Source of the DNA: a virus
DNA: 64,000 bases
Virus record (IMG/VR): IMGVR_UViG_3300033153_007277
Location: 1 to 64,000 of that record
Strand: one strand, 5' to 3'
Shown here one piece after another: positions 9,619 through 63,271 of this stretch. Each line of letters opens with the position of its first letter. Position 1 is the first letter of the stretch. The notes under the pieces were generated by a model that made no database searches, had not been told where the DNA came from, and saw only the letters and a list, made by a program, of their open reading frames with translations. The translations under genes and the position numbers were made by a program.

Positions 9619-9825
9619 ATGTTCTGTCCTAAATGCAAAAATAGAGAATCGAAAAAGCAGATTGAAGGCTTTGAAGAATTGAAAGCGATTCAGAAAAAGA
9701 GGTATGGCAAAATACCTTGTAATAATTGTCTAATCGAATTGATAGGAGGATATAACGAATATGAGAAACAAAAAATAAACCAAATACTCAAAGAAATGGG
9801 TATTGAAAAACCTTCGAACAAATGA
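9619..9825 (+). CDS. Small zinc-ribbon protein
   Basis: A 68-residue protein with CPKC at residues 3-6 and CNNC at about 34-37, a classic four-cysteine zinc-binding arrangement, followed by a charged helix. Such small zinc ribbons in phages often bind host transcription proteins or nucleic acid. The specific role is unknown. Confidence 0.6.
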   Translation: MFCPKCKNRESKKQIEGFEELKAIQKKRYGKIPCNNCLIELIGGYNEYEKQKINQILKEMGIEKPSNK

Positions 9826-9865
9826 AAGCTTTTAAAAAGGCAGATGAACTAATAAATAATAAGTA

Positions 9866-10390
9866 ATGGGAAAGCAAACAGAATTAGTAGTGTGTAAGTC
9901 ATGCGAAGAAACAGATATAATAGCCGAAGGTTCTTCATGCAAAAATTGCGGAGAAGTCTACAAGAAAGAGAAAATCAAGAAACCTTCTGCCATGGAAATC
10001 TATGTTCATGAAGTATCAGAAGCTAGAGATAAGTACATCAAGGCGATGAGGAAAGAGAAGCTTTCTAAGGAAGAGAAATTGGAGATGTATAAGGAAGAGG
10101 ACAAGGGTGTTATTTCTTTCAAGGAGGAGTTGCTGGAGTCGGATGAAATGAAATCTTACTTTGACAAGATTCAGGGTGCTAGGGAGAAGTTTATGGAAGA
10201 TAAATTGAAGGAGCATTTGAGTGAGGGGGATCGGGCTAAGTTTGAAACTTATAAGGAGTTGGCAGATTATTTCGCTGGTGAGGGGGTTGTGAAGACTTTG
10301 TACCAGGGATCAGGGTACTCAGATTCAAAGTATGGCATAATGATTAATGGGAAAGAGTATTGGCTTAAGGAAAGTGATATTGAAATATAG
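9866..10390 (+). CDS. Zinc-ribbon protein with charged helical tail
   Basis: This is a 174-residue protein. Two CxxC pairs (CKSC near 10 and CKNC near 26) form a rubredoxin-like or zinc-ribbon knuckle. A long, very charged helical region follows (about 45-130) and a short beta-rich end (KYGIMINGKEYWLKESD). Spacing from its neighbours is about 40 and 97 bases, and the latter gap holds a stem-loop. Function unknown; DNA or protein binding is plausible. Confidence 0.65.
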   Translation: MGKQTELVVCKSCEETDIIAEGSSCKNCGEVYKKEKIKKPSAMEIYVHEVSEARDKYIKAMRKEKLSKEEKLEMYKEEDKGVISFKEELLESDEMKSYFDKIQGAREKFMEDKLKEHLSEGDRAKFETYKELADYFAGEGVVKTLYQGSGYSDSKYGIMINGKEYWLKESDIEI

Positions 10391-25625: not shown

Positions 25626-28600
25626 TTAATTAAAAAGGTTAGATTTTTTACTGCTCTTGGTTTCTAGCCTACCTGTTTCTTTATCAAACTCAATGACTTT
25701 GTTTTTTTTAGCATTTTCAAATAAGCTTAATCCAATTCTATCAGTAGTTGTTTTCCCGGAAGAAGTTTTGTATGTGAATTTTTTCTTAAGCTCGTAATCA
25801 GAGAAGCCTAATTGCTTCATTGACTCGTACTTCTTGTTCATAGTACCTAAGATATCTTTTAGCTTAGCTTCAGTAAATTCAAGTGATTCATCACCATTCT
25901 TGTAGTTATTGAGAACATTGGAAATAGTTTCTTTAAGAGCCCAATTTGTGAAAGAGTAATTATCAATCATACTATACTCCTTAAGCTTTACACCGACATT
26001 TGTATTTAAGAGTTCATTTTTCCATTTGGTTATTTTACCTCTATCGCTTTTCTTAATATCTTTTTCATCCTTGAATATATCTTCAATTATACCGCTAACA
26101 TCTCTATATGCTGTTGGCTCCATCCCTTTTGTGAGGTGATATAGCCTATTTGTGATCCAAGACTCGAAGCTTGCGTTGGCGGGAGATATAGGATTACCTC
26201 TTTCATCATATCCGGTAATTAATTCGAAAACTCTTTTACCAAAAATACTTGGAGAACGATATGGACCAGAAGCTTCTTTAGCAGCTTCGTACATTCCATC
26301 AAAAACACCGTCTGCCCTGCTTGCAGCTGTAAACATTTTATGGATATTTGAAGATGGATCAACATAAGATAGATCAAAGAATTTAGGATTCTTTTTATCG
26401 TCATTCATGTATAATCTAGATGAATTTTTAGCCCAAGGAGCCATATTTTCAGCTATAGCTTCATCGTCTTCGTCTGTCAAGCCATGTAGACTCATAAAAA
26501 AAGCTCTTGCGGCTGTTCCAGTTAACATCATAGTAGATAGACCTACCATTCTTCTAGCAGCCTGTTTTCTTAGCTTACTAGCTCTTTCTTTATGTACTTT
26601 AGAGTTAACATCATCTCCAGCTTCCTTGAGGTCTTTAGCTTTAATAGATTCTTCTTTGGCAGCTTTTGAAAAATTACTAATACTTTTAAGTATGTTCCAT
26701 TTATTCCTATATGTTTGGTAATCGAACAAAATGAAATCTGCTATAAATAATGATTTACTCATAGTTTTCAGTAATTCAGGAGACTCTGAATAGGTTGGCT
26801 GCTCTAGTCTAACTAGTTTTGCTGCCTCTTTATCTATTTCTGCATCGGTTTTTGTATCTCCGTAAATATCTTTTAGAGTGTTAACTTCACCCATAAACTG
26901 AGATATCTTAAACATAGCATCAGTTGCCTGATAAGGCTTAGAAAACATCTTCATGAAGTCTGAATAAATCTTCTTACTCTTGACCCTGAGTCCTTCTGTT
27001 TTACCAGTGACAGCTTTAGTGTGATATATCCCTTCTACAATCTCCTCAATAATGCTAGCTTCTACTGACTCATCCATCATTCTCTCCTTAGTCATTCTGA
27101 TAATTTGCTTTCGGATATTTTCTTTTGAAGTTCCCTTAAACTTCTCACCCATTGTTAGTGACGCAGCATACAACATACCAAAATAAGGATTCATTAACGA
27201 CCCTGTAATCTTCTGACCCGCGGTCATCTCACTTGCGACAATCGCTGCAGCTTCAAAAAGATGCTTAGGAAGGTGACCGGTAGTACCTAAATTTATAAAG
27301 GCACCAATCATGTTTCTTGATTGAGAACCAGGGCTCAATATGGTAAGATTTGCTTTTTGATAAGAATTGAGAGTTTTAAATAATGCAGCTACTTCACTTT
27401 CTGCTTCTAATTTAGTTTTACCTTCTGTAACAAATCCTTTCTTAAAAGGAGTTAATATATTTTGAGGTCTATCAAACAATAAAGAATACATTTCCGGAGA
27501 AGTCCAAAGACCGCCAAGTTGTTTGGATTTTTCCTTGCCTATAAACACTGTATTGGTAATATTGTCTTTTGTCTCTGTGAACAAAGTGCCTGTACCATTA
27601 GATTTTAATTCTGTTTCGAATCTCATTTTCTCTATAAGACCAGACATTTTCATACTTGTTCTAAGGAAATTGGTAGCGGGGTCTGTGTACTCACCGTAAA
27701 TAACTCTAATAGCGGGGTCTAGGTCAGCTCTCTTTTTAAGAACACTTAGGTCAGCCTTTTTAACGGTTCCGGTACCAGAACTAGCTAATGCTAATGTCTC
27801 TCCTTTCGTATCTACATCAAGTAAAGATTCTAATATTGATTCAGCATCTGCGGTTGAAATAGAGAAATCGATTAAATCACCTTTGGCAGATAAATTCCCA
27901 ATAGCTATTTGATCGCCTGTTTTACCAGCTTTTCTAGCTACAGCTATTTCGTTGTTTATGACATTAGCTATTTCCTCACCAAACATAACCTCAAATACAT
28001 TAAATGCATCCTCAGAGGGTCTTATTGATTCCCCGAAATTACTTCCAATACCAGATCTATTTGTAAAGTATAAATCGATATCACCAGACGCTGTTTCTTT
28101 CCATTCTATTCTAGAAATGTTATTGGAACTAAATTTAGATTTTATAGATTTTAAAGCGTCAATTATCTGTTCTTCTGAAAATATCTTTTTATATTTTTTG
28201 TGATACTCCGGAATGTCATATTTCATATATGTTCTATGAATATACATGCCTTCATTTTCATTGAAAGAAACCTCAAGCTCTGTAATATCTTGACCAGCTT
28301 CTTTATGAATTTCTAGTATTTCTTTAGACATTCCGCTAATGAACTCCTTCATTGACTGAACCTCATTTAACAGCTCTTTAGGGACTTTAAGGATACCTGC
28401 CTTAGTGTTTAAAGCCGAACCTACTATATCCCAAACTTCATCTGGATCAACCTTTCCTTCTGGATTACTTTTATAATCTTTCTTGTATTGGTTAAATTTC
28501 TTCTGGAAGTCAATTAACATTAACTGACCTTTCTTTTCTCTCTCAGCTAGGTTTCCTTTGAATTCTCCTTTAGAGTCATACAGCTCACTACTAACCCCTT

Positions 28601-31600
28601 TTTTTAGCCAATGATTTTTCCAGGACTTAAATACCCCCCACTTATTTCTATCAGACAATATAGACCTATCTATTTTAAATGGCATGGTACCTCCTTTGAG
28701 TTCTTCTGATAGTTTTTTACTGGATATATCGGCTAATTTTTCTCCTTTCAATAATTCTTTAGCAGCTAATGTTGTGAAATCATCTAAAGATGTGTTAGCT
28801 AGATTTATTCTTGGATTGATTTTCATCAACCTGCCTATATATTTAAACAGTTTATTCACCCACTCTTTAAATTTACTTTCGTTTTCGATTAAATCAAGAC
28901 CTTTGTCAGCTATAGCTTTTCCTAGAGCTTCGTGAAGAATCTCATTATTATCTGGCATTGTACCATCTTCTTTTCTGTGAGCCAAATCTTTGTAATGCTC
29001 TACAGTTTCTGCATGGTAGGGAGAATCTTTTACTAATTGAATACCTTTATTATAAATAGCTTTAGCTTTTGTTTTAGCTACAACTGTCCATAAGTGAGCA
29101 AATTCCTCAAGCACAGCCCCTTCATTCGCTTTTTCCGGGTTAATATAAATCTCATTTGTAGAGTGATCGTAGAATGCAACATTGTTGGCTATCCTATCTT
29201 GACTCCATCCATTTGCTTCAACTTTTTTGTCGTATGATTTCTTATCTGAATAGACTCCTATTTCAGGGAACGCTTTTTCAAGTCTGTTTATCAAAGTGGA
29301 TATGAACTTAGAAGCACGGGCAGAATTAGATCTCTGTTCGGATGTTTTCTTTTCAACAACAATATTTGGAGATTGAGTATCCTCGTATTTGATGTCTTCT
29401 TCAGCGGCTTTCTCTATATCTTTCTGCTTTGATAATTTTTCTTTGTATTTATCAGAGACCTCAGACATTTTTTTGATTAATGCACTCTTCTTTTCCGCAG
29501 GAAGATCAGATGATTTTATCTGGTTGGTTATGGTGTTTTCAATGCCAGTACCATTGATTTTTATACCTAATGGCTTACCACCATTATCTACGAGATTAGA
29601 TGCTTTTTCTATAGCAGATTCGAATGTGTCAGTAGTGAGATCTTTACTCTTAATTACTTCCGGTTTTTGCTTTTGGGTAATTTTTGTTGCAGCAGCTTTT
29701 TTAGCAGCTTCAGATCTTTTAGCAAACTCTTTCTTTTTTTCTTTTTTAGCCATCTCAGCTTTCGAAACTGTTGCTGATGCTACAGACGATACTTTACGAG
29801 AAGCATCTTCCATTTTCTTATTGGCATCTACATACGCATCTGGATTAACCATTCTTACAGAAGGAGATAACTCTCTAGCTTCTCTGTATGACTCGTAAGC
29901 AGCTTTATAATCCTTAGATTTTTCATGAGCCTTACCTTCTGATATTTTTAAATCATATTCTTTAACAGATTCTTGAGTAGTTTTTAACCCTTTCTTCGCT
30001 TGCTGCTCCGCTATTTTAGCAGTTTCAGCTTCTTTAATTTTCTCTTCACCTTCAATCTTAGTAATCGATTGGACAAAGTTATTAACTGTTTCATTGTCTT
30101 TAATATATTCTTTGGCAATAGCAGGAAGTGTCTTTCCTTTAGTGCCTAATTCTTCATTGACTTTACTTATAAATTCAGGTGTCTTTTTGCCGTAAGCTTG
30201 ATTAACGGACCTGGTAACCCTTTTACTTGATGCTTCCTGAGCTTTTCGCTCTGCAGATCCTTTCGATTTTCCTTCAGCTTTTTCTGCAGCTTTAATATGG
30301 CTGAATGCCTCAATCTTTAATTTGGAAACTTCTGGACTTATCTTTTGTTTTCCAACAAGAACTTCTTTGGCCTTTTTCTGGCCCTTAACTTTTGCAGCAG
30401 GAGCAATGATTTCCTCTTCTTTAGGGAACGGAACTCCTTCTTCTAGCCCTTCTGTTTTGGCCCTTTTTTCAGATTCCATATATTCAGACACGGCTTTGGG
30501 ACTAACTCCTAATTCCTTTGCCGCAGCTTTAAACTCATCTCTAGCTTTCTTTTCAACTTTAGCTTTTCCAACTGCACCACCTTCTATGGTGGCGACATCA
30601 GTGTCGTAAGCATCAACTAAATTGCTATGAAGTTTCTTTATGTTATCGTCTTTAGCTGCCTCAACTACAGCTTCTTTTTTATCCGTCAGCTCTATATCCG
30701 AAACCTCTTCTTTTACTTCTTTCTTTTTGATTTCTTCAGCAACTTCTACTTTCTTAACAGGTTCAACACCTTCAACTACTTTTTCAGCAACTTTTTCAAC
30801 AGGCTTCTCAACTTTTCTTTTAACTCCAAGAGTCTCTTCAAGTTCAACATCCTCTGTCGGAAGAACGGGAGCAGCTTCACCTAATCCAACGCCTTCTTCA
30901 GATAATTGAGCTTCAAGTTGACTGTATTGTTGCTGAAGAGCTTCTATTATTTCTGGGTCAGCTTTTTTCTGCTGAAGAGTATTTATTACAGCTCCACCTA
31001 TTTTAAGGTTAAAGGCAGTACTAAACATCATACTTATTATTCCGGTGGTGGCAAGCTTTTTCGTAAACTCATCACCAGTTTCTCCAAATGTTTTGTCAAA
31101 TGCCTTACTCCAATTATATCCTGTCTTATTAAGTTCATCTGTAAATTCACCGACAAACTCACTGATAGTTTCAGTAGTGGTACCGCCACCTATCTTAGCT
31201 AAATTTTCTATAATTATACCCCATTTTCCTCCGTATTTCTTAGCTATATTAAGTCCACCAACTATCTTTGATGCAGCACCCTCTCCAAACCCCATTGAAG
31301 CAGTTATGTCTTCTGATGAAGTAAGCCCATATACAAATGCTCCTTCAAGCCCACCTGATATGGTGTTGTATACAAATCTACCAGCTCTTCCACTTTTCTG
31401 AGTCAAAGCTGTCTTGACAATATTCATCGCCTTAGAAGCTCTGGATAATTTTGATACACCTGCAACTACAGGAGTGGCTATTATACTGGTTAATATAAGC
31501 TCTGTCATTGCGGGTATAGAACTACCTATTCCTTCTGCTACAGCTGTTGACAAATCTTCTTCAATTATAGATTCTTGCTCTTCAGAAAGACGAACGCCCA

Positions 31601-33758
31601 TTGACTTGAGCTGATTAATAGAATTTTTCGCGACATCAGCATCACTATCAACTTCACCTCCAAAGCCTTCAAATGCACCTTCTACCATGCTCTCTATGAA
31701 TCCACCGACTCCTTCTCTTAAAGTGCCTCCAGTAAATGTCTTTCTACCTGAAGGATCTTGATTGAGCATTACCATATAATTTAACGCATCAAAATCCTTT
31801 TTAGCTTCATCGTATGCTGACTTTCTCGATTCTAATTGTTTTTTGCTGACATCTCCATGAGGAACTATTTTTGTATAAATGTCTGGTTTTTGTGAACCAA
31901 CAAAATCCCTAGTAGACATATCCATTGAAAATATTCTTCCACCTTTTTCCCCGAGCTCATTCATCTCGTAATTAAGTGGCTCATCAAATAGCTTTTCAAA
32001 ATGCTTTAACCTAGCCATCGATTCCTGCCACTTTGAAACAAGTATGTCAACTGGCATGGTTTTATATTTTGCAGCAGCTTTAATGACTACATCTTGATAT
32101 GTTTTATCTTCCACATCTCCAACGTGTTTCCATGTTCCGTCATTAATGTCGTACATTTCTTTAGGACTATCCTGAAGTAATTTTATTTGCTTACTTAATG
32201 AAGCAACTTCATTCATTTTTTCAATCCTATTTGCTACATCACCTTCTTTTGGTTTTGTTGTATTTATCTCCAGTCTAAGTCTATTAACTTTGTCTTGAAG
32301 TGAAAATAACTGCCTTTGCTCATCGCTCAAGTGGGACATGGCATATTCCATATCTTTATTCACCTCTTGCATTTTTATAGCCTCAATAACATCAGCGTCT
32401 TGCCCAGAAAGGTTCACCCCATTATCTCGGGCTATTGTTCTGACACGTTCTTTTATTGTATAAGGCAATGAAGCCTGATTTGTTTTCGAAAACTTAATGT
32501 TTTGCCAAGCAGAATTAAATGTGGATTCATCTACATCTACACCTTTATCTCTTTTTATAAGAGCGATTATAGATGCGGCATCCTCATCTTTAAGTAATGA
32601 TATTTTATCGTTACTTTTCCCGTCTAATAATTCTTTTAAATAATCCTCAGTACTGTGTATGTCTTGTTGGATTCCATTTTTCCTTATGTTTTCATACCTT
32701 TCTGCCATCTCATCAGAGGTAAGAAATATTGGACCTTCTTCACCTTCTGGCTGTAAGCTTAGTCCAGTTGAATTATAATCAGGATGAAGTAGCTTCAATT
32801 CCCTTATTGCAGAAGCTTTAGTGTGGCCTTGTTTAAATGGATTCTCATTGTACAAATCTATATAGTCAGAAAGCCAAGCCTCTTCTTTGTGAGCTTCAGT
32901 TAAGTTCTCGCTAACGATTTCTTTCCTGATTCTAGATAAATCCTTTTCTTCTTTGTATTCTAAAGGAACATTTCCAATAACGCTTGATAAGGCTGTTTCT
33001 TCAGTCTCCTCTGGCTTGTATTCCTCGCCACTTTCTCTAGTTAAATCCTCTTCCTGTTTTTTAAGCCCTGAAGCTCTTCCCGATGCTTGAGTTAATATCT
33101 CCCTCTTATTAGCACTCCTCTCTGCTTCTTCTTTTTCTACGAGGATATCGTATTCGGTTTTCTTTTCATCCGGCTTAATAGCAAAAGCTTCATCAAATAC
33201 TCTCTGAGCTTTATCCACCTCGTCAATAACAGCATCGTCAGCTAAAGCGTTAGCTTCGTCTTTTGATCCAGAAGACATTTCTGCTTGATGAACATCTTCA
33301 ATTGGTCTATCTACTGGGTATAATAAGCTTTTAAATTCATCAAAATCTTTACCAAGCTGTATGTCTGTCTCTTTTCCATACGTAGACATAGCAAGTTGTT
33401 TCCGTAGATTCTTTAGAAGTTCATCATTTCCGCTAGATTTAGATATCATATTATCTAGAGTAATGTTCTTGTCAAATCCTTCTAGATTACTAACATGGCT
33501 ATATATATTATCCCAGTTAGGATTTTTCTTTTGAGGTACTGGAAGTGGTATTGGATCTCCCTCTTGCTTAGTAGGTTGAGAAACCTCTTCAGTAGAGCTA
33601 ACCAAACCTTGTTCTGGGACTGCTTGAGTTCCGGAAACTAAAGGGGATTGCTCGGTAACAGGTACCTTTACATTTTTATCAAAACGATCCGTATCTTTAG
33701 ATATTTCATGTACTTCTGGTGCATTTCCAGTTTGAGTATTTGTCACATCTACTGCCAT
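25626..33758 (-). CDS. Giant polyvalent internal virion (ejection) protein, 2710 aa
   Basis: This is the largest gene here. The N-terminal 600 residues are charged and helical. A hydrophobic segment (AMTELILTSIIATPVVAGVS) lies near 755 and another near 905. The middle (about 970-1500) is a long Lys/Glu/Ala coiled coil. At about 1545, VLEEFAHLWT resembles the metallopeptidase-like helix of polyvalent proteins. The C-terminal part (about 2130-2450) has GSQSRNMIGAFINLGTTG, FIADFILFDYQTYRNKW and a hydrophobic MVGLSTMMLTGTAARAFFM, recalling LPD-type domains. Such proteins are packaged in podovirus capsids and ejected to protect or translocate DNA. No lysozyme motif was seen. Family assignments are tentative; the role is inferred from size and position. 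Confidence 0.7.
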   Translation of the reverse strand: MAVDVTNTQTGNAPEVHEISKDTDRFDKNVKVPVTEQSPLVSGTQAVPEQGLVSSTEEVSQPTKQEGDPIPLPVPQKKNPNWDNIYSHVSNLEGFDKNITLDNMISKSSGNDELLKNLRKQLAMSTYGKETDIQLGKDFDEFKSLLYPVDRPIEDVHQAEMSSGSKDEANALADDAVIDEVDKAQRVFDEAFAIKPDEKKTEYDILVEKEEAERSANKREILTQASGRASGLKKQEEDLTRESGEEYKPEETEETALSSVIGNVPLEYKEEKDLSRIRKEIVSENLTEAHKEEAWLSDYIDLYNENPFKQGHTKASAIRELKLLHPDYNSTGLSLQPEGEEGPIFLTSDEMAERYENIRKNGIQQDIHSTEDYLKELLDGKSNDKISLLKDEDAASIIALIKRDKGVDVDESTFNSAWQNIKFSKTNQASLPYTIKERVRTIARDNGVNLSGQDADVIEAIKMQEVNKDMEYAMSHLSDEQRQLFSLQDKVNRLRLEINTTKPKEGDVANRIEKMNEVASLSKQIKLLQDSPKEMYDINDGTWKHVGDVEDKTYQDVVIKAAAKYKTMPVDILVSKWQESMARLKHFEKLFDEPLNYEMNELGEKGGRIFSMDMSTRDFVGSQKPDIYTKIVPHGDVSKKQLESRKSAYDEAKKDFDALNYMVMLNQDPSGRKTFTGGTLREGVGGFIESMVEGAFEGFGGEVDSDADVAKNSINQLKSMGVRLSEEQESIIEEDLSTAVAEGIGSSIPAMTELILTSIIATPVVAGVSKLSRASKAMNIVKTALTQKSGRAGRFVYNTISGGLEGAFVYGLTSSEDITASMGFGEGAASKIVGGLNIAKKYGGKWGIIIENLAKIGGGTTTETISEFVGEFTDELNKTGYNWSKAFDKTFGETGDEFTKKLATTGIISMMFSTAFNLKIGGAVINTLQQKKADPEIIEALQQQYSQLEAQLSEEGVGLGEAAPVLPTEDVELEETLGVKRKVEKPVEKVAEKVVEGVEPVKKVEVAEEIKKKEVKEEVSDIELTDKKEAVVEAAKDDNIKKLHSNLVDAYDTDVATIEGGAVGKAKVEKKARDEFKAAAKELGVSPKAVSEYMESEKRAKTEGLEEGVPFPKEEEIIAPAAKVKGQKKAKEVLVGKQKISPEVSKLKIEAFSHIKAAEKAEGKSKGSAERKAQEASSKRVTRSVNQAYGKKTPEFISKVNEELGTKGKTLPAIAKEYIKDNETVNNFVQSITKIEGEEKIKEAETAKIAEQQAKKGLKTTQESVKEYDLKISEGKAHEKSKDYKAAYESYREARELSPSVRMVNPDAYVDANKKMEDASRKVSSVASATVSKAEMAKKEKKKEFAKRSEAAKKAAATKITQKQKPEVIKSKDLTTDTFESAIEKASNLVDNGGKPLGIKINGTGIENTITNQIKSSDLPAEKKSALIKKMSEVSDKYKEKLSKQKDIEKAAEEDIKYEDTQSPNIVVEKKTSEQRSNSARASKFISTLINRLEKAFPEIGVYSDKKSYDKKVEANGWSQDRIANNVAFYDHSTNEIYINPEKANEGAVLEEFAHLWTVVAKTKAKAIYNKGIQLVKDSPYHAETVEHYKDLAHRKEDGTMPDNNEILHEALGKAIADKGLDLIENESKFKEWVNKLFKYIGRLMKINPRINLANTSLDDFTTLAAKELLKGEKLADISSKKLSEELKGGTMPFKIDRSILSDRNKWGVFKSWKNHWLKKGVSSELYDSKGEFKGNLAEREKKGQLMLIDFQKKFNQYKKDYKSNPEGKVDPDEVWDIVGSALNTKAGILKVPKELLNEVQSMKEFISGMSKEILEIHKEAGQDITELEVSFNENEGMYIHRTYMKYDIPEYHKKYKKIFSEEQIIDALKSIKSKFSSNNISRIEWKETASGDIDLYFTNRSGIGSNFGESIRPSEDAFNVFEVMFGEEIANVINNEIAVARKAGKTGDQIAIGNLSAKGDLIDFSISTADAESILESLLDVDTKGETLALASSGTGTVKKADLSVLKKRADLDPAIRVIYGEYTDPATNFLRTSMKMSGLIEKMRFETELKSNGTGTLFTETKDNITNTVFIGKEKSKQLGGLWTSPEMYSLLFDRPQNILTPFKKGFVTEGKTKLEAESEVAALFKTLNSYQKANLTILSPGSQSRNMIGAFINLGTTGHLPKHLFEAAAIVASEMTAGQKITGSLMNPYFGMLYAASLTMGEKFKGTSKENIRKQIIRMTKERMMDESVEASIIEEIVEGIYHTKAVTGKTEGLRVKSKKIYSDFMKMFSKPYQATDAMFKISQFMGEVNTLKDIYGDTKTDAEIDKEAAKLVRLEQPTYSESPELLKTMSKSLFIADFILFDYQTYRNKWNILKSISNFSKAAKEESIKAKDLKEAGDDVNSKVHKERASKLRKQAARRMVGLSTMMLTGTAARAFFMSLHGLTDEDDEAIAENMAPWAKNSSRLYMNDDKKNPKFFDLSYVDPSSNIHKMFTAASRADGVFDGMYEAAKEASGPYRSPSIFGKRVFELITGYDERGNPISPANASFESWITNRLYHLTKGMEPTAYRDVSGIIEDIFKDEKDIKKSDRGKITKWKNELLNTNVGVKLKEYSMIDNYSFTNWALKETISNVLNNYKNGDESLEFTEAKLKDILGTMNKKYESMKQLGFSDYELKKKFTYKTSSGKTTTDRIGLSLFENAKKNKVIEFDKETGRLETKSSKKSNLFN

Positions 33759-57403: not shown

Positions 57404-57425
57404 AATTTCAATCTAAAAAGAATTA

Positions 57426-57455
57426 GGTGGGTTTTTTTAAGTTTGGCGTCCCACC
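57426..57455 (-). terminator. Hairpin at the end of the RNA cluster
   Basis: GGTGGG (57426-57431) and CCCACC (57450-57455) pair around an 18-base loop that holds the A-run on the minus strand. It is a weak terminator candidate: a T-rich stretch (CTTTTTAG) follows at about 57421-57411. It may act as a processing barrier between the tRNA-like gene and the protein gene. Confidence 0.35.
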
Positions 57456-57478
57456 TTCTTCCCTATCTTACTCGTTAG

Positions 57479-57552
57479 AACGATTAGCAGGATTCGAACC
57501 TAATACGAACTATTTCTAGATCAGCCATCACCAACTCGGCATCTCTAATCGT
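57479..57552 (-). tRNA. tRNA-like A (abnormal anticodon arm)
   Basis: Acceptor ACGATTA/TAATCGT pairs perfectly (7 bp). The D arm GCCG-AGTTGGTGA-TGGC is normal and the T arm TTAGG-TTCGAAT-CCTGC is acceptable, with one mismatch. But the acceptor-to-D linker is 5 instead of 2 bases. The anticodon segment GATCTAGAAATAGTTC forms a stem only with a T-T mismatch and a 6-base loop without U33. The variable loop is short. It is either a degenerate tRNA or a tRNA-shaped RNA. A hairpin motif shared with tRNA-like B precedes it. Confidence 0.5.
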
Positions 57553-57555
57553 TAC

Positions 57556-57596
57556 GCTCGTCGTTTCCGAGCTGTCATACAACCTCCCTATGTTGT
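57556..57596 (-). repeat. Conserved pre-tRNA hairpin motif, copy 1
   Basis: TATGACA (57579-57573) is followed by GCTCG-GAAACGA-CGAGC (57572-57556), with a CATAGGGAG tract (57592-57584) upstream. A second copy precedes tRNA-like B at almost the same distance (27 against 28 bases from TATGACA to the first tRNA base). It may be a processing signal, a ribozyme element or a promoter-like leader. Confidence 0.45.
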
Positions 57597-57665
57597 AATC
57601 GTGACATGGTTACTGCTTATATTGAAAAAGGCATTCTAGTTACCATGTAAACCCATTCGCCTTTG

Positions 57666-57748
57666 TGCTAGGGGGATGATTCGAACATCCAACCTGTAGG
57701 TCAATTTTACTGCTTCCTACCGCTCTTACCTGCTTGAGCTACCCACGC
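57666..57748 (-). tRNA. tRNA-like B (15-base anticodon loop)
   Basis: The D arm GCTC-AAGCAGGTAA-GAGC is good and the T arm GGATG-TTCGAAT-CATCC is perfect. The acceptor GCGTGGG/CCCTAGC has two central mismatches. The anticodon stem GTAGG/CCTAC is perfect but encloses 15 bases instead of 7. These can refold as a short CA/TG stem with a 7-base loop GTAAAAT (U33 present, AAA in anticodon position). This is a possible extended anticodon arm or tRNA remnant. Confidence 0.5.
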
Positions 57749-57753
57749 AATTT

Positions 57754-57817
57754 CCCAGTCTTTCCTGAGTGTCATATCTGCCCTGAAAGGTGTTTCGGAT
57801 TAATCCAACTCCCTATG
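57754..57817 (-). repeat. Conserved pre-tRNA hairpin motif, copy 2
   Basis: CATAGGGAG (57817-57809), TATGACA (57776-57770) and CTCAG-GAAAGA-CTGGG (57769-57754) mirror copy 1 at 57556. The spacing to the first base of the following tRNA-like sequence is nearly the same, while the bases between CATAGGGAG and TATGACA differ in length. Confidence 0.45.
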
Positions 57818-57835
57818 CCTACTCATGTAGCTCGA

Positions 57836-58140
57836 TAAGCGACCCGACTCTTACGGGTTATCGTTTAATGAGTGGGGGATTATCGTTTCCCCCAGTACGT
57901 TCTACGCTGCAACTCTAAGCTGCGGTGTAAAAAGGTTTATAACTTTTGCAGTTATATTTATCAATCTAAAGTTCATTACCCTTATCTCGCTGTCAAATCC
58001 AGGTCACCCCCATATATCCACCAGAGGTTTGATAGTTCCTAACTCTGGCCCATTGGAAAATGGTAGTGGAGGTGGGGGAAATCGAATCCCCGTCCAAACA
58101 AGTAGCTAATAACAAATTGTGCCATGCACTAGATTAATGT
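57836..58140 (-). ncRNA. ssrA: Circularly permuted tmRNA candidate
   Basis: On the minus strand the 3' part comes first. T arm GGGGA-TTCGATT-TCCCC (58091-58075) is preceded by GGAC and followed by acceptor CACCTCC and discriminator A (58074-58067). After 55 bases comes a textbook tmRNA 5' end, GGGGGTG followed by ACCTGGATTTGACAG (58011-57990). GGGGGTG pairs with CACCTCC over 7 bp (one G-T). A P2-like helix joins CGAGATAAG (57989-57981) with CTTGTTTGG (58102-58094), continuing TAATgAAC with GTTATTA and TAGATTGA with TTAATCTA. A tag frame starting GCA (57949) encodes AKVINLFTPQLRVAA and a TAG stop (57904-57902). Hairpins GGGGG...CCCCC (57893-57874) and CCCG...CGGG (57857-57843) follow. tmRNA rescues stalled ribosomes. 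The outer ends of the two pieces are estimates. Confidence 0.72.
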
Positions 58141-58144
58141 TTTT

Positions 58145-58418
58145 AAATGTAAATAAAATTAGATCAACTTACATGCTATCGTGGCAAGGCTAATTGTATT
58201 TACCAATATGTTAAAGAACTAACGAGGTTCTCCTGCTACTAACTTATTGTTTTCATTAATGATTCGACTGTCCATAAACTCATAAATCCTTTCGGTGCTT
58301 TTCCAACTATCTTTTACAAAGCATCAAACAGCGTTGCTTAAACTTGATCTCATGAAACCAAGATATGGCCTCCCTCATTAACTATTCAATAAATCAAAGA
58401 ACCTCTTTTCTATGCTTG
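58145..58418 (-). other. Structured non-coding segment of unknown nature
   Basis: This segment lies between tRNA-like C and the tmRNA. It has no convincing open reading frame but several pairings: GATCAAG...TTTGATG (58347-58319), CC-GAAA-GG (58290-58283) and a promoter-like TAGTTCTTTAACATAT (58221-58206). The last could start the tmRNA precursor. An ACCGAAAGG also occurs in tRNA-like C. It may be a spacer, the 5' leader of the tmRNA or another RNA gene. Confidence 0.4.
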
Positions 58419-58574
58419 CAGTGCAAACAGGATTTGAACCTATGGACCCTTTCGGTAGTTGCTTCCCTACTCCGGGTCAGTAGTTGTTATCCTTGAGCAA
58501 CAAATAAAGAAGTTTACTCTTTATCAATCATTTGGATTAGACCACCGCTTTCAACCATACTTAGCTATTGCACT
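58419..58574 (-). tRNA. tRNA-like C with 81-nt insertion at the anticodon
   Basis: A perfect acceptor stem AGTGCAA/TTGCACT (58574-58568 with 58426-58420), TA linker, D arm GCTA...AAGC with GG in the loop, and a T arm ATAGG-TTCAAAT-CCTGT. The anticodon stem GGTGGT (58546-58541) can pair with ACTACC (58459-58454), but 81 bases lie between. The insert holds hairpins ATAAAGA-GTAAACT-TCTTTAT and CTACT-GACCCGG-AGTAG. The latter loop can pair with GGGTC (58449-58445) as a pseudoknot. The whole is 156 nt instead of about 75. It is an intron-containing or composite tRNA-like RNA; the type of intron is not recognised. Confidence 0.45.
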
Positions 58575-58846
58575 ATGACAATATTGCATCTCTACAACAA
58601 AGCCATTGCAAATGTAAACAAATATCTGAAAGTAACAAAAGAAAAACCAACTGTTTACATAACAACCCCCACTTTTATTCAATCAAACAACACATACCCA
58701 ACCAATTACAAACCCCCCCTATAAAGTATTTAATCTATAACACAAAGAATCCTTAATATAGATATTTATGAAGACTCCGGAACATAGCCTAAGTTATTGT
58801 TCTTCGCCCCCACCAAGCTCTGATCTATTCAATGGACCTTGGGTGG

Positions 58847-58943
58847 CAAAATGTAATAATTAAATCGTATGTGGCACTTACATAATATACTTTTATTTAC
58901 TTTACTATACTTTACTTTACTTGCATTGCGAACGCATTGGCTA
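58847..58943 (-). promoter_or_regulatory. Putative promoter region for the RNA cluster
   Basis: Read on the minus strand: TAGCCAATGC (58943-58934), repeated AAGTAAAG/AGTAAAGTA, GCCACATA (58875-58868) and TTACATTTTG (58856-58847). This reproduces in the same order the block before the gene at 2128 (TAGCTACCCAATGC, AAGTAAAG, GCCACATA, TTACATTTG). The -7 box has one extra T, so strength is doubtful. A CCACCCAAG/CTTGGTGG hairpin follows on the transcript. It is the likely start of transcription for the minus-strand RNA cluster. Confidence 0.5.
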
Positions 58944-59500
58944 CCTATCCATCACCCATATAGGTAATCTATGGGTACCCATTAAGTACCTATTCCCTCC
59001 CCATGTACGGGTACCTCATATATAAACACCCCCACCCCTTTTAACTTCTTGATTATCAAATTGTTATAAGTGCCATATTCTATCTGGAGAAAAAGTATTG
59101 ATGAAATATCAGGGATAATACTACTGGGGGTAATCCGTATCCGTGGGGGTAGTATATAATACAATAGGCCCCCACCCCTTTTCAAACCGAAACCCCCAAC
59201 AACTTAACCTCCTAAAACCCAAATCCTTAACTATCTTTACTCTTTTACCCCGTAACCCCTTTGGGAGGGGCTACTCTCTTGAGGGTCACTTAGTTAGCTG
59301 AGTATTCATTGCAGAGCTTCGCCTCCCAAGGCGGGGCGGGGTGCTCTTTGTCAGGGGCAAAAACCTACCCCCCAGCCCCATGACCTATTCATCCATTACC
59401 TTAATACACTGAGTTACAACACATTGCCCCGAATGGGTATCCAATGCTAACCTATTAGTAGCCCACCTTTTACCCATAACATCGGGCCTATTGCATTGTA

Positions 59501-59526
59501 TTATATCTATATATTATATCTATATA
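59501..59526. repeat. Perfect tandem repeat of TTATATCTATATA
   Basis: Two exact 13-bp copies (59501-59513 and 59514-59526) in an AT-rich tract. In a non-coding region at the divergence of transcription this may be a DNA-unwinding element or protein-binding iterons. Confidence 0.7.
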
Positions 59527-59757
59527 GAGAGTGGACACACCTTTAGGGGGTTGGTACTAATCACTACAGCCCAGTGATACCAACACATTCACACATTCAA
59601 TTTGTTTCTCTCAGCATTTAGCCTGATGTTTACAATGTCGACAGGCAAACGAGCCAACAGACATACACACTGACAAGCACATGACACGAGCATTACATGT
59701 GTACCTTTTCACTCACATCTACACAGTGAGAGTTTAACACAGATTAAACGAGGTTGC

Positions 59758-59775
59758 TAGTTCTTTGACATATGA
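59758..59775 (+). promoter_or_regulatory. Promoter-like element TAGTTCTTTGACATATGA
   Basis: The element is shared, with few changes, with the minus strand at 58221-58203 (TAGTTCTTTAACATATTGG). Its form resembles upstream elements of strong Bacteroidota promoters. It would start transcription of the early plus-strand genes from 60077. Confidence 0.4.
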
Positions 59776-59911
59776 AGTTGTAAAACGAAGGGGTGCTAAC
59801 AAACCCTAAAAAGAAAACCCAAGTGGGGGGAAAAGAGTACCACTTTAAACAGACAAAAGACTACGGTGACCAGTGAATAAAGTAACTGGATACGTAGCAA
59901 GATTATACAGC

Positions 59912-59985
59912 TATGAAGTGTTAATAGAGTGACGCAAGGATGGCAACCTTAAAAACTAAACCATGAAGTGTTAACAGAGTTACGC
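59912..59985 (+). repeat. Direct repeat in the early leader (about 24 bp, 50-bp period)
   Basis: TATGAAGTGTTAATAGAGTG plus ACGC (59912-59935) recurs as CATGAAGTGTTAACAGAGTT plus ACGC (59962-59985), with three or four changes. A stem CCAGTT-GGT-AACTGG (59988-60002) follows the second copy. Possibly binding sites or RNA hairpin-associated repeats in the leader of the gene at 60077. Confidence 0.6.
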
Positions 59986-60011
59986 CCAGTTGGTAACTGG
60001 TAAAACTGTTT

Positions 60012-60548: not shown

Positions 60549-60608
60549 CGCAGTACAGCGGTGCTCATAGAATAAGCTATGGGGGTGGTTCGACTCCATT
60601 TTCTGCGA
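60549..60608 (+). tRNA. tRNA-like D, D-arm-less (low confidence)
   Basis: Acceptor CGCAGTA/TTCTGCG (one T-T mismatch), anticodon-like hairpin CATAG-AATAAG-CTATG with a 6-base loop, and T arm GGTGG-TTCGACT-CCATT. The D arm is replaced by ten bases that can form only AGC-GGT-GCT. Total 60 nt. It may be a degenerate tRNA or a tRNA mimic in the leader of the gene at 60629. Confidence 0.3.
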
Positions 60609-60791: not shown

Positions 60792-61625
60792 ATGAAAAAG
60801 GTATTTACAAGCTCATACGATGTGATACATCTATTTGCACAAAGAAGTCAAGACGAAGCAAGAGTTTCAAACAGAAGCGTATATTTTAACAACGAAACAA
60901 AGATTTATTCTTATGGTTCGCATTATTTGTTAGGTGAGTTTTTAGATGCCAACACAATAATGATAAATGATGACGGATATAGCGTTACAACATCAAAACA
61001 TATCAGCCAAATAAAAGGAGCAACAAGCCAGTATAGACAGTTCTTAAAATCAGAGTCGGACATCGACAGAGTACATAGTCACGTAATAGCTAACAAAAAC
61101 AGGTTAGCAAATGCAAGAAAGCCCGAAATGTACATAAACCCCATTTTAAATCTATGGTCCACGCTTAACACTTTCCTTGAATACAGCAAAGCAAAGAAGT
61201 ACAAAAGCAATAAAAAATATCGAGAGATTAAATCTATTGTGAATGCCCTCAATAATGGTTCCGATGACTTCAAAGAGAAATTGAGACTTGCAGCCATAAA
61301 AGAAGCGAAAGCTCAAAAGAGAAAAGACGCGAAAGAACTAGTAGAAAAACTAGAGAAATTCAACAACTATGAAATCAATTTCTTTAGAGTTGGAAAGGAG
61401 GACTACCTGAGACTATCACAGGATGGTGAAAGAGTGGAAACTTCCCAACATGTAAGCGTTAAGCGAGAGAATGCAAAACTATTGTATCAAATGATCGAAA
61501 GAGGTATTGAAATAAAAGGCAAGCATATCGAAAACTATGTAGTTACCAGTATAAACGGTACATTGAAAATTGGATGCCATAGTATAAATATTGAGAGCAT
61601 GCATAAAATAGGCAAATCTCTGTAG
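60792..61625 (+). CDS. DUF8033-like early phage protein
   Basis: A 277-residue protein. The N-terminus (VIHLFAQRSQDEARVSNRSV, IYSYGSHYLLGEFLD and YSVTTSKHISQIKGATSQYR) matches a conserved early phage/plasmid protein domain known as DUF8033. The rest is a Lys-rich helical part and a C-terminal domain repeating the pattern on a smaller scale (INFFRVGKEDYLRL, VETSQHVSVKRE). Function unknown; typical of the first-expressed genes. Confidence 0.65.
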   Translation: MKKVFTSSYDVIHLFAQRSQDEARVSNRSVYFNNETKIYSYGSHYLLGEFLDANTIMINDDGYSVTTSKHISQIKGATSQYRQFLKSESDIDRVHSHVIANKNRLANARKPEMYINPILNLWSTLNTFLEYSKAKKYKSNKKYREIKSIVNALNNGSDDFKEKLRLAAIKEAKAQKRKDAKELVEKLEKFNNYEINFFRVGKEDYLRLSQDGERVETSQHVSVKRENAKLLYQMIERGIEIKGKHIENYVVTSINGTLKIGCHSINIESMHKIGKSL

Positions 61626-61706
61626 TCGACTAAGCGACTCTAAACCACATTAAGCTTAGTGCGTCCCTCATTGCGAGGGGGTTGTATAAACTAAAACACA
61701 TATAAA

Positions 61707-62207: not shown

Positions 62208-62435
62208 ATGTGCCATTCAGAACTAGTAGAACTTTTATTTGAATTAGATTCAGTAAGAGAAGCGTTACACAGAACAGATGTAGCTATGATCCGTCAGGCC
62301 CAAATGGAAACCAATGAGCGAACAATTGACAATCGCGTTAGAATCCACCGCCAACAAAAACAACTAAGAAAAGAAAGAATAAGAGCGAACATGGAAATAG
62401 GTTTCGCTCTTGAATGTCCAACAATGAAAAACTAA
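62208..62435 (+). CDS. Small coiled-coil protein
   Basis: A 75-residue protein: CHSELVELLFELDSVREALH and RTIDNRVRIHRQQKQLRKER, mainly helical and basic toward the end. It begins 2 bases after the previous stop. No family recognised. Confidence 0.5.
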   Translation: MCHSELVELLFELDSVREALHRTDVAMIRQAQMETNERTIDNRVRIHRQQKQLRKERIRANMEIGFALECPTMKN

Positions 62436-62446
62436 AAATCACTATC

Positions 62447-63267
<821 letters not shown>

Positions 63268-63271
<4 letters not shown>

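What the first reader, a model, noticed from the sequence alone, without database searches (positions are those of the whole stretch)
57836..58140. Circularly permuted tmRNA encoded by a phage
The 3' half (T arm, GGAC, acceptor CACCTCC) lies upstream of a textbook tmRNA 5' end (GGGGGTG followed by ACCTGGATTTGACAG) on the same strand. They are joined by a perfect 7-bp acceptor helix (one G-T) and by a long P2-like helix between the two pieces (57989-57981 with 58102-58094, then further pairs). Permuted, two-piece tmRNAs are established for alphaproteobacteria and some cyanobacteria. One-piece tmRNA is the rule in Bacteroidota. I do not know of one described in a Bacteroidota phage. It may let the phage rescue ribosomes with its own tag.
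Basis: partly seen in the sequence, partly recalled or inferred. Interest (0 to 1): 0.88.

Follow-up and report, generated by a model that had tools for sequence, protein, structure and literature searches.

The report
Phage-borne two-piece ribosome-rescue RNA
This virus of Bacteroidota bacteria carries a rearranged, two-piece version of the RNA that frees stuck ribosomes, with its own protein-tagging sequence; relatives turn up in other, otherwise unrelated Bacteroidota viruses although the sampled bacteria themselves keep the ordinary one-piece gene.

Summary
The minus strand at about 58113-57867 holds a complete circularly permuted tmRNA gene: RF04321 scores 71.7 bits (cut-off 47), and ARAGORN calls it permuted with tag AKVINLFTPQLRVAA. 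The genome is a 70-kb phage with 114-bp terminal repeats. Its start sites (no Shine-Dalgarno, A-rich) and primase relatives point to a Bacteroidota host. I found clear relatives in IMG/VR contigs, in a flavobacterial prophage and in named phages (Maribacter Panino, Chryseobacterium MA9V-3, several Crassvirales), deposited only as generic 'tmRNA'. Acceptor, T-arm and P2 helices are kept across them by compensatory changes. Core members share a distinct tag, (A/G)KVI(N/Q)..., unlike host tags (GEDNYALAA). The distance from 5' end to resume codon is 57-65 nt, against 83-90 in other permuted tmRNAs and about 95 in host one-piece tmRNA, so pseudoknot PK1 seems absent. About 790 sampled Bacteroidota genomes gave one permuted hit above cut-off, in that prophage. 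The window's tRNA-like domain resembles flavobacterial one-piece tmRNA (84%) more than the few alpha/beta-type permuted genes compared (60%), suggesting an independent permutation. Permuted tmRNA in marine phages of other phyla was already known: a new variant of a known kind.

The parts
58067..58113 (-). Acceptor piece of the two-piece tmRNA: P2 3' strand (58113-58097), GGAC, T arm, acceptor CACCTCC and discriminator A
   Evidence: RF04321 match; sequence; covariation
58012..58066 (-). Intervening segment (55 nt) between acceptor and coding pieces; presumably removed by tRNA-processing enzymes. CCA is not encoded directly after the discriminator (A-CTACCA follows)
   Evidence: sequence; spacer computed; processing inferred
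57902..58011 (-). Coding piece: acceptor 5' strand GGGGGTG, D-like region ACCTGGATTTGAC, P2 5' strand (57991-57971), tag reading frame
   Evidence: RF04321 to position 213; ARAGORN
57902..57949 (-). Tag reading frame: resume GCA 57949, AKVINLFTPQLRVAA, stop TAG 57904-57902
   Evidence: ARAGORN; tag relatives
57873..57894 (-). Hairpin TGGGGG/CCCCCA just after the tag stop; probable 3' end structure of the coding piece
   Evidence: sequence; matched by the 3' hairpin of the beta_tmRNA model
58609..58639 (-). Bacteroidota-type promoter TTTG-N19-TACATTTG upstream of the RNA-gene cluster
   Evidence: pattern scan; consensus match only; 5 matches of this pattern in the whole genome, both strands
58419..58574 (-). 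Neighbouring tRNA-like element with a long insert in place of a normal anticodon arm (same putative transcript)
   Evidence: RF00005 35.1 bits
57666..57748 (-). Neighbouring tRNA-like element with a 15-nt anticodon loop
   Evidence: RF00005 40.5 bits; not called by ARAGORN
57479..57553 (-). Neighbouring tRNA-like element with a GAAA tetraloop in place of an anticodon loop
   Evidence: sequence and script; only 18.2 bits to tRNA-Sec

Best explanation
A real, phage-encoded, circularly permuted (two-piece) tmRNA of a lineage spread among Bacteroidota phages. Shown by sequence: acceptor half upstream of the 5' half, pairing of the two pieces through the acceptor stem and P2, an intact resume codon and tag frame, relatives with compensatory changes. 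Inferred: one transcript made during infection is cut by host tRNA-processing enzymes at about 58067 and 58011, the 3' end gets CCA, host AlaRS charges it (G3.U70 invariant), host SmpB and EF-Tu deliver it to stalled ribosomes, and stalled proteins receive AKVINLFTPQLRVAA and go to ClpXP-type proteolysis. It would add to or replace the host's one-piece tmRNA while host mRNAs are being broken down. Also inferred, with less confidence: the permutation arose independently of the alpha, beta and cyanobacterial lineages, from a flavobacterial one-piece tmRNA, with loss of PK1.
For: RF04321 71.7 bits; ARAGORN permuted, intact tag. Homologues over the RF04321 cut-off in 8 IMG/VR contigs (about 5 distinct sequences), in a prophage with integrase, DNA polymerase and RIIA in a Bacteroidota genome that also has its own one-piece tmRNA, and in Panino, MA9V-3, cr50_1 and cr10_1. 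Acceptor and T stems: 120/120 cells paired, 5 pairs changed on both sides, no slid register comes close. P2: only 2 of all 5040 strand assignments (own one included) reach the own-strand score, and a fraction 7e-5 of random assignments with ten sequences. Core tag family (A/G)KVI(N/Q) with synonymous codon changes. Bacteroidota host: SD-like cores not above chance, A-rich starts; primase 45-46% to Tenacibaculum phage JQ and a Lutibacter MAG. No SmpB in the phage records, one in the prophage's host genome. Window P2-flank columns identical to a flavobacterial one-piece tmRNA, 64% to the best alpha/beta-type permuted one.
Against: No expression, processing or charging data. The only lineage-specific permuted model listed, beta, is below its cut-off (47.0 against 84). 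50 viral contigs, most of them sharing the primase, gave no RF04321 hit (many are fragments), and the one close relative contig (L001) ends before the locus. Origin rests on about 55 columns and only four alpha/beta-type permuted comparators; L153, L156 and the G286 prophage do not favour the host one-piece group. PK1 loss is inferred from spacing.
Confidence: 0.85

Rival explanations
1. Same molecule, different origin: the phages took a permuted tmRNA from an alpha/beta/cyanobacterial lineage (for example through marine phages) and its tRNA-like domain was later reshaped towards the host by recombination or selection.
For: Permuted tmRNAs are common in marine phages (PMC9004378); L153 and L156 look as close to alpha/beta-type permuted sequences as to host ones; the beta model gives a sub-threshold match over 58176-57869.
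Against: Window, L158, L155, Panino and MA9V-3 match flavobacterial one-piece tRNA-like domains at 0.73-0.84 against 0.60-0.65 for permuted comparators; most tags start with Gly (GGC or GGT), as in flavobacterial hosts; no PK1-sized segment.
Confidence: 0.3
2. It acts mainly as a competitor or decoy of the host's tmRNA (binding SmpB, AlaRS or ribosomes) rather than as a working tag-adding tmRNA.
For: A tRNA-like-domain-only molecule like that of phage DS6A inhibits endogenous tmRNA (PMC4131195, PMC11915505); PK1 is apparently absent; the hosts keep their own tmRNA.
Against: The tag frame is intact in every member read and conserved at peptide level with synonymous codon changes; most tags end in -AA.
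Confidence: 0.12
3. A decaying relic, for example captured at a tmRNA/tRNA integration site, with no present function.
For: It sits in a nearly gene-free stretch beside tRNA-like elements with broken anticodon arms.
Against: Acceptor, T arm, P2, resume signal and tag are all intact and conserved across diverged phages; a permuted gene cannot simply restore a one-piece host gene at an attachment site.
Confidence: 0.06
4. Chance resemblance or a mis-called tRNA fragment.
For: None beyond the presence of tRNA-like sequences nearby.
Against: E 8.6e-12, ARAGORN, family with covariation.
Confidence: 0.01

Closest known systems
Two-piece (permuted) tmRNA of alphaproteobacteria, betaproteobacteria and cyanobacteria (RF01849, RF01850, RF01851; merged model RF04321)
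   Same: Gene order (acceptor half first), acceptor stem with G3.U70, T arm, P2 joining two pieces, resume codon and tag frame; RF04321 above cut-off
   Different: No lineage-specific model passes its cut-off; 5' end to resume codon is about 57-65 nt instead of 83-90, apparently without PK1; tag (A/G)KVI(N/Q)...; tRNA-like domain flavobacterial in type; found in phages, not as the host's own gene
Two-piece tmRNA of marine phages (methylophage Melnitz, pelagimyophages, cyanophages; PMC9004378)
   Same: Phage-borne permuted tmRNA
   Different: Those follow alphaproteobacterial, gammaproteobacterial or cyanobacterial lineages; this one belongs to Bacteroidota phages and has another tag
Permuted tmRNAs deposited in Maribacter phage Panino (PP540027), Chryseobacterium phage MA9V-3 (PV245944), Crassvirales cr50_1, cr10_1, cr272_1, cr273_1
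   Same: Permuted, Bacteroidota phages, short 5' part where I counted it; Panino's tag GKVMNVSFAPTVRQFA resembles the window's
   Different: MA9V-3 and Crassvirales tags differ (GNVIDINKYVAKLEVAA, GNNFVTDY..., GNINVVDY...); annotated only as tmRNA; the Panino paper does not use the words permuted or two-piece (PMC11590407)
One-piece tmRNA of flavobacteria and of Cellulophaga phage Calle_1 (RF00023)
   Same: Sequence of the tRNA-like domain and P2; Gly-first tag in flavobacterial hosts
   Different: Not permuted; has the extra ~30 nt before the resume codon; tags GEDNYALAA, GNEEFALAA in hosts

Membership tests
Permuted (two-piece) tmRNA, RF04321 | Covariance-model score above the curated cut-off | tested here: met
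   71.7 bits against 47, full model 1-213
Permuted (two-piece) tmRNA, RF04321 | 3' half upstream of 5' half on one strand, joined by a 7-bp acceptor stem | tested here: met
   58074-58068 with 58011-58005; further stem versions by double changes in relatives
Permuted (two-piece) tmRNA, RF04321 | P2 helix between the two pieces | tested here: met
   2 of 5040 assignments reach the own-strand score; 7e-5 with ten sequences
Permuted (two-piece) tmRNA, RF04321 | Resume codon and short tag frame ending in small/hydrophobic residues | tested here: met
   AKVINLFTPQLRVAA* and relatives
Permuted (two-piece) tmRNA, RF04321 | Alanine identity G3.U70 | tested here: met
   G.U in 10 of 10 sequences
Permuted (two-piece) tmRNA, RF04321 | Processing into two RNAs, aminoacylation, SmpB-dependent tagging | not testable with these tools
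   needs RNA and protein experiments
Betaproteobacterial permuted tmRNA (RF01850) | Score above lineage cut-off | tested here: not met
   47.0 bits against 84
Permuted tmRNA with PK1 (hairpin in RF04321 between P2 and resume codon) | PK1-sized segment present | tested here: not met
   model hairpin aligned to a gap; 5' end to resume about 62 nt against 83-90; absence of PK1 itself is inferred
One-piece tmRNA (RF00023) | Standard-order model above cut-off | tested here: not met
   no RF00023 match listed in the window at cut-off or at E<=5 in the local scan, where lower-scoring overlapping clan matches are left out
Bacteroidota phage | Host signature | tested here: met
   no SD excess, A-rich starts, primase relatives; no direct host link such as a CRISPR spacer

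The most novel reading that the evidence does not exclude
A fourth, independent origin of circularly permuted tmRNA: it arose inside Bacteroidota phages from a flavobacterial one-piece tmRNA, lost PK1, spread among unrelated phages (temperate, lytic, crAss-like), and carries a conserved phage tag (A/G)KVI(N/Q)..., perhaps recognised differently from the host's GEDNYALAA-type tag.
Probability: 0.5. Interest if true: 0.72.

Novelty: new variant of a known kind. Interest (0 to 1): 0.6.

Why it matters
Permuted tmRNA is taken to mark three bacterial clades. Finding it as a phage-only form in a phylum whose sampled members use the one-piece gene makes the origin of permutation, long an open point, directly testable with isolates in hand (Panino, MA9V-3). 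It also shows a compact two-piece design apparently without PK1, and a conserved tag at odds with the host's, which asks whether phages redirect ribosome rescue. Databases label these genes plain tmRNA, so the pattern is hidden.

Tried and rejected
Exact 22-base probe in IMG/VR: none. Terminase and portal searches found one close contig (L001, 83-84%), too short to reach the locus; L015 is a distant portal relative without tmRNA. 50 viral contigs, most sharing the primase: no permuted tmRNA. A first wide pattern found 11 phage contigs, whose permuted tmRNAs mostly score to alpha or beta models; those my script could parse serve as comparators. Calle_1's tmRNA is one-piece. blastn of the window's 2.2-kb RNA region against phages: none. 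The second tag pattern also hit six contigs of an unrelated protein gene, discarded. A free duplex comparison of P2 strands was too loose (85 of 5040) and was replaced by a register-bound one; the replacement was chosen after seeing the first result, so its p-value is optimistic, and the wider ten-sequence run adds three sequences scored with the same rule. A FastTree of the short domain had weak support and is not relied on. My script failed to parse the alphaproteobacterial genomic tmRNAs L213-L216, so they are not among the comparators. Literature: no mention of permuted tmRNA in Bacteroidota phages in the held library, which lacks many subscription papers, including 'Variations on the tmRNA gene'.

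Full report
What is there. The minus strand holds, in order: P2 3' strand, GGAC, T arm and acceptor CACCTCC (discriminator A58067), a 55-nt spacer, then GGGGGTG (58011-58005), CTGGATTTGAC, P2 5' strand, resume codon GCA (57949), the frame AKVINLFTPQLRVAA, stop 57902, and a G/C hairpin 57894-57873. RF04321 matches full length with 71.7 bits (cut-off 47, E 8.6e-12); ARAGORN calls a permuted tmRNA. The beta-lineage model matches below its cut-off (47.0 against 84).

The carrier. The record is an IMG/VR virus of 70,207 bases with a 114-base exact terminal repeat, so probably complete. Terminase and portal profiles match. Of 88 ATG starts only 4 have an SD-like core, as many as chance; A is enriched at -3, -6 and -9 to -13, as in Bacteroidota (the comparison with Bacteroidota is from general knowledge; Cellulophaga phage Calle_1 shows the same signature). 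The primase is 46% identical to that of Tenacibaculum phage JQ and 45% to a gene in a Lutibacter MAG. A TTTG-N19-TACATTTG promoter match lies upstream of the RNA cluster; it is a consensus match only.

The family. An RF04321 search of 395 genomes of the phylum of a Chryseobacterium genome (G052), and 396 of the order of G286 (the two draws overlap), found one match above cut-off, in genome G286. It lies in a prophage (DNA polymerase, helicase, RIIA, integrase) beside tRNA genes, and G286 has its own one-piece tmRNA, tag GEDNYALAA. These large searches used strict filters that lose weak matches. A pattern from the two genes found seven IMG/VR contigs, a looser one an eighth, all above cut-off. 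Some are near-duplicates (L152/L156; L153/L157/L154). Tags: AKVINLFTPQLRVAA (window), AKVINLFGNEAKLAA (L158), GKVINLFGNTVQAAA (L155), GKVINLFSAPVRLAA (L152), GKVINLHEVNLLETAA (L153), GKVIQMFAQPVRLAA (L177), GKVIQMNNAPVRLAA (G286). The patterns required K-V-I, so its conservation within the IMG/VR set is partly by selection; the window and G286, which were not chosen by tag, agree on it, Panino, found by the T-arm region alone, has GKVMN, and the later residues NLF and the ending were not fixed by the first pattern. The carriers share almost no proteins with the window phage; none shows a strong SD excess (G796 has 5 against 2.0 expected, the highest) and all have A-rich starts.

Named phages. 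Blastn with two family members hit Maribacter phage Panino, Chryseobacterium phage MA9V-3 and Crassvirales cr50_1, cr10_1, cr272_1 and cr273_1. In each the T arm lies at the start of the annotated tmRNA, and ARAGORN calls them permuted. RF04321 passes for Panino, MA9V-3, cr50_1 and cr10_1, not for cr272_1/cr273_1. They are annotated simply as tmRNA. The Panino paper does not mention permutation.

Structure test. In ten sequences all 120 acceptor and T-stem cells pair; five pairs change on both sides; sliding the register destroys this. The sequences had been picked with acceptor and T-stem pairing as a filter in my script, so the 100% figure is partly by selection; the double changes are not. 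G3.U70 is invariant. For P2, which was not used for picking, only 2 of 5040 assignments of strands reach the own-strand score, and a fraction 7e-5 of random assignments with ten sequences. Relatedness of the sequences is not removed by these tests, but the P2 strands differ widely.

Size of the coding piece. The distance from 5' end to resume codon is 57-65 nt in this family (corrected by one base), against 83-90 in three permuted tmRNAs of other phages and about 91-97 in Bacteroidota one-piece tmRNAs. The segment missing is that of PK1, aligned to a gap in the model. Loss of PK1 is an inference.

Origin. Over about 55 columns the window's tRNA-like domain is 84% identical to a flavobacterial one-piece tmRNA and 60% to the best of four alpha/beta-type permuted ones; the P2-flanking columns are identical to one host sequence. 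MA9V-3, L158, L155 and Panino behave alike; L153, L156 and the G286 prophage are undecided. This favours an independent permutation, but the data are short and the comparators few.

Mechanism. Most likely the RNA is transcribed in infection, cut into two pieces by host tRNA enzymes, charged with alanine and used with host SmpB (no SmpB in the phages, one in the G286 genome) to rescue ribosomes and tag proteins. Only the anatomy is shown; every step from transcription onward is inferred. Phage two-piece tmRNA is published for marine phages (PMC9004378) and permuted forms are catalogued in bulk (PMC11915505), so the kind is known; the Bacteroidota phage lineage, its tag and its compact form are what seem new.

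Noticed in passing
window 58574-58419(-), 57748-57666(-), 57553-57479(-), 60549-60608(+); L014 1088-1276(+): Five tRNA-like elements with T arms and mostly good acceptor stems but aberrant anticodon arms (82-nt insert, 15-nt loop, GAAA tetraloop, mini form, long insert), while ARAGORN finds no ordinary tRNA in the phage. Function unknown.
   Followed up: partly
L155 about 9805-9875(+): Another tRNA-like sequence with a very short anticodon arm directly after the permuted tmRNA of a different phage.
   Followed up: no
window 61624-61686(+): Pistol ribozyme, 58 bits, at the stop codon of the 277-aa ORF 60792-61625.
   Followed up: no
window 57404-59989: About 2.5 kb with almost no plausible protein gene, holding the tmRNA and tRNA-like elements; other structured RNAs may be present (nested helices at 57872-57820).
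   Followed up: partly
window 62414-63271(+): 285-aa ORF dominated by Ala/Asp/Tyr repeats.
   Followed up: no
window 25626-33758(-): 2710-aa protein without Pfam match.
   Followed up: partly
L181 852-1018, L182 121-299: RAGATH-22 and RAGATH-9 RNAs near the permuted tmRNA in crAss-like phages.
   Followed up: no
L153/L157 permuted tmRNA: ARAGORN reports a wrong tag (DNQQLIELY) here and misses several family members; tags have to be read by hand (GKVINLHEVNLLETAA).
   Followed up: yes
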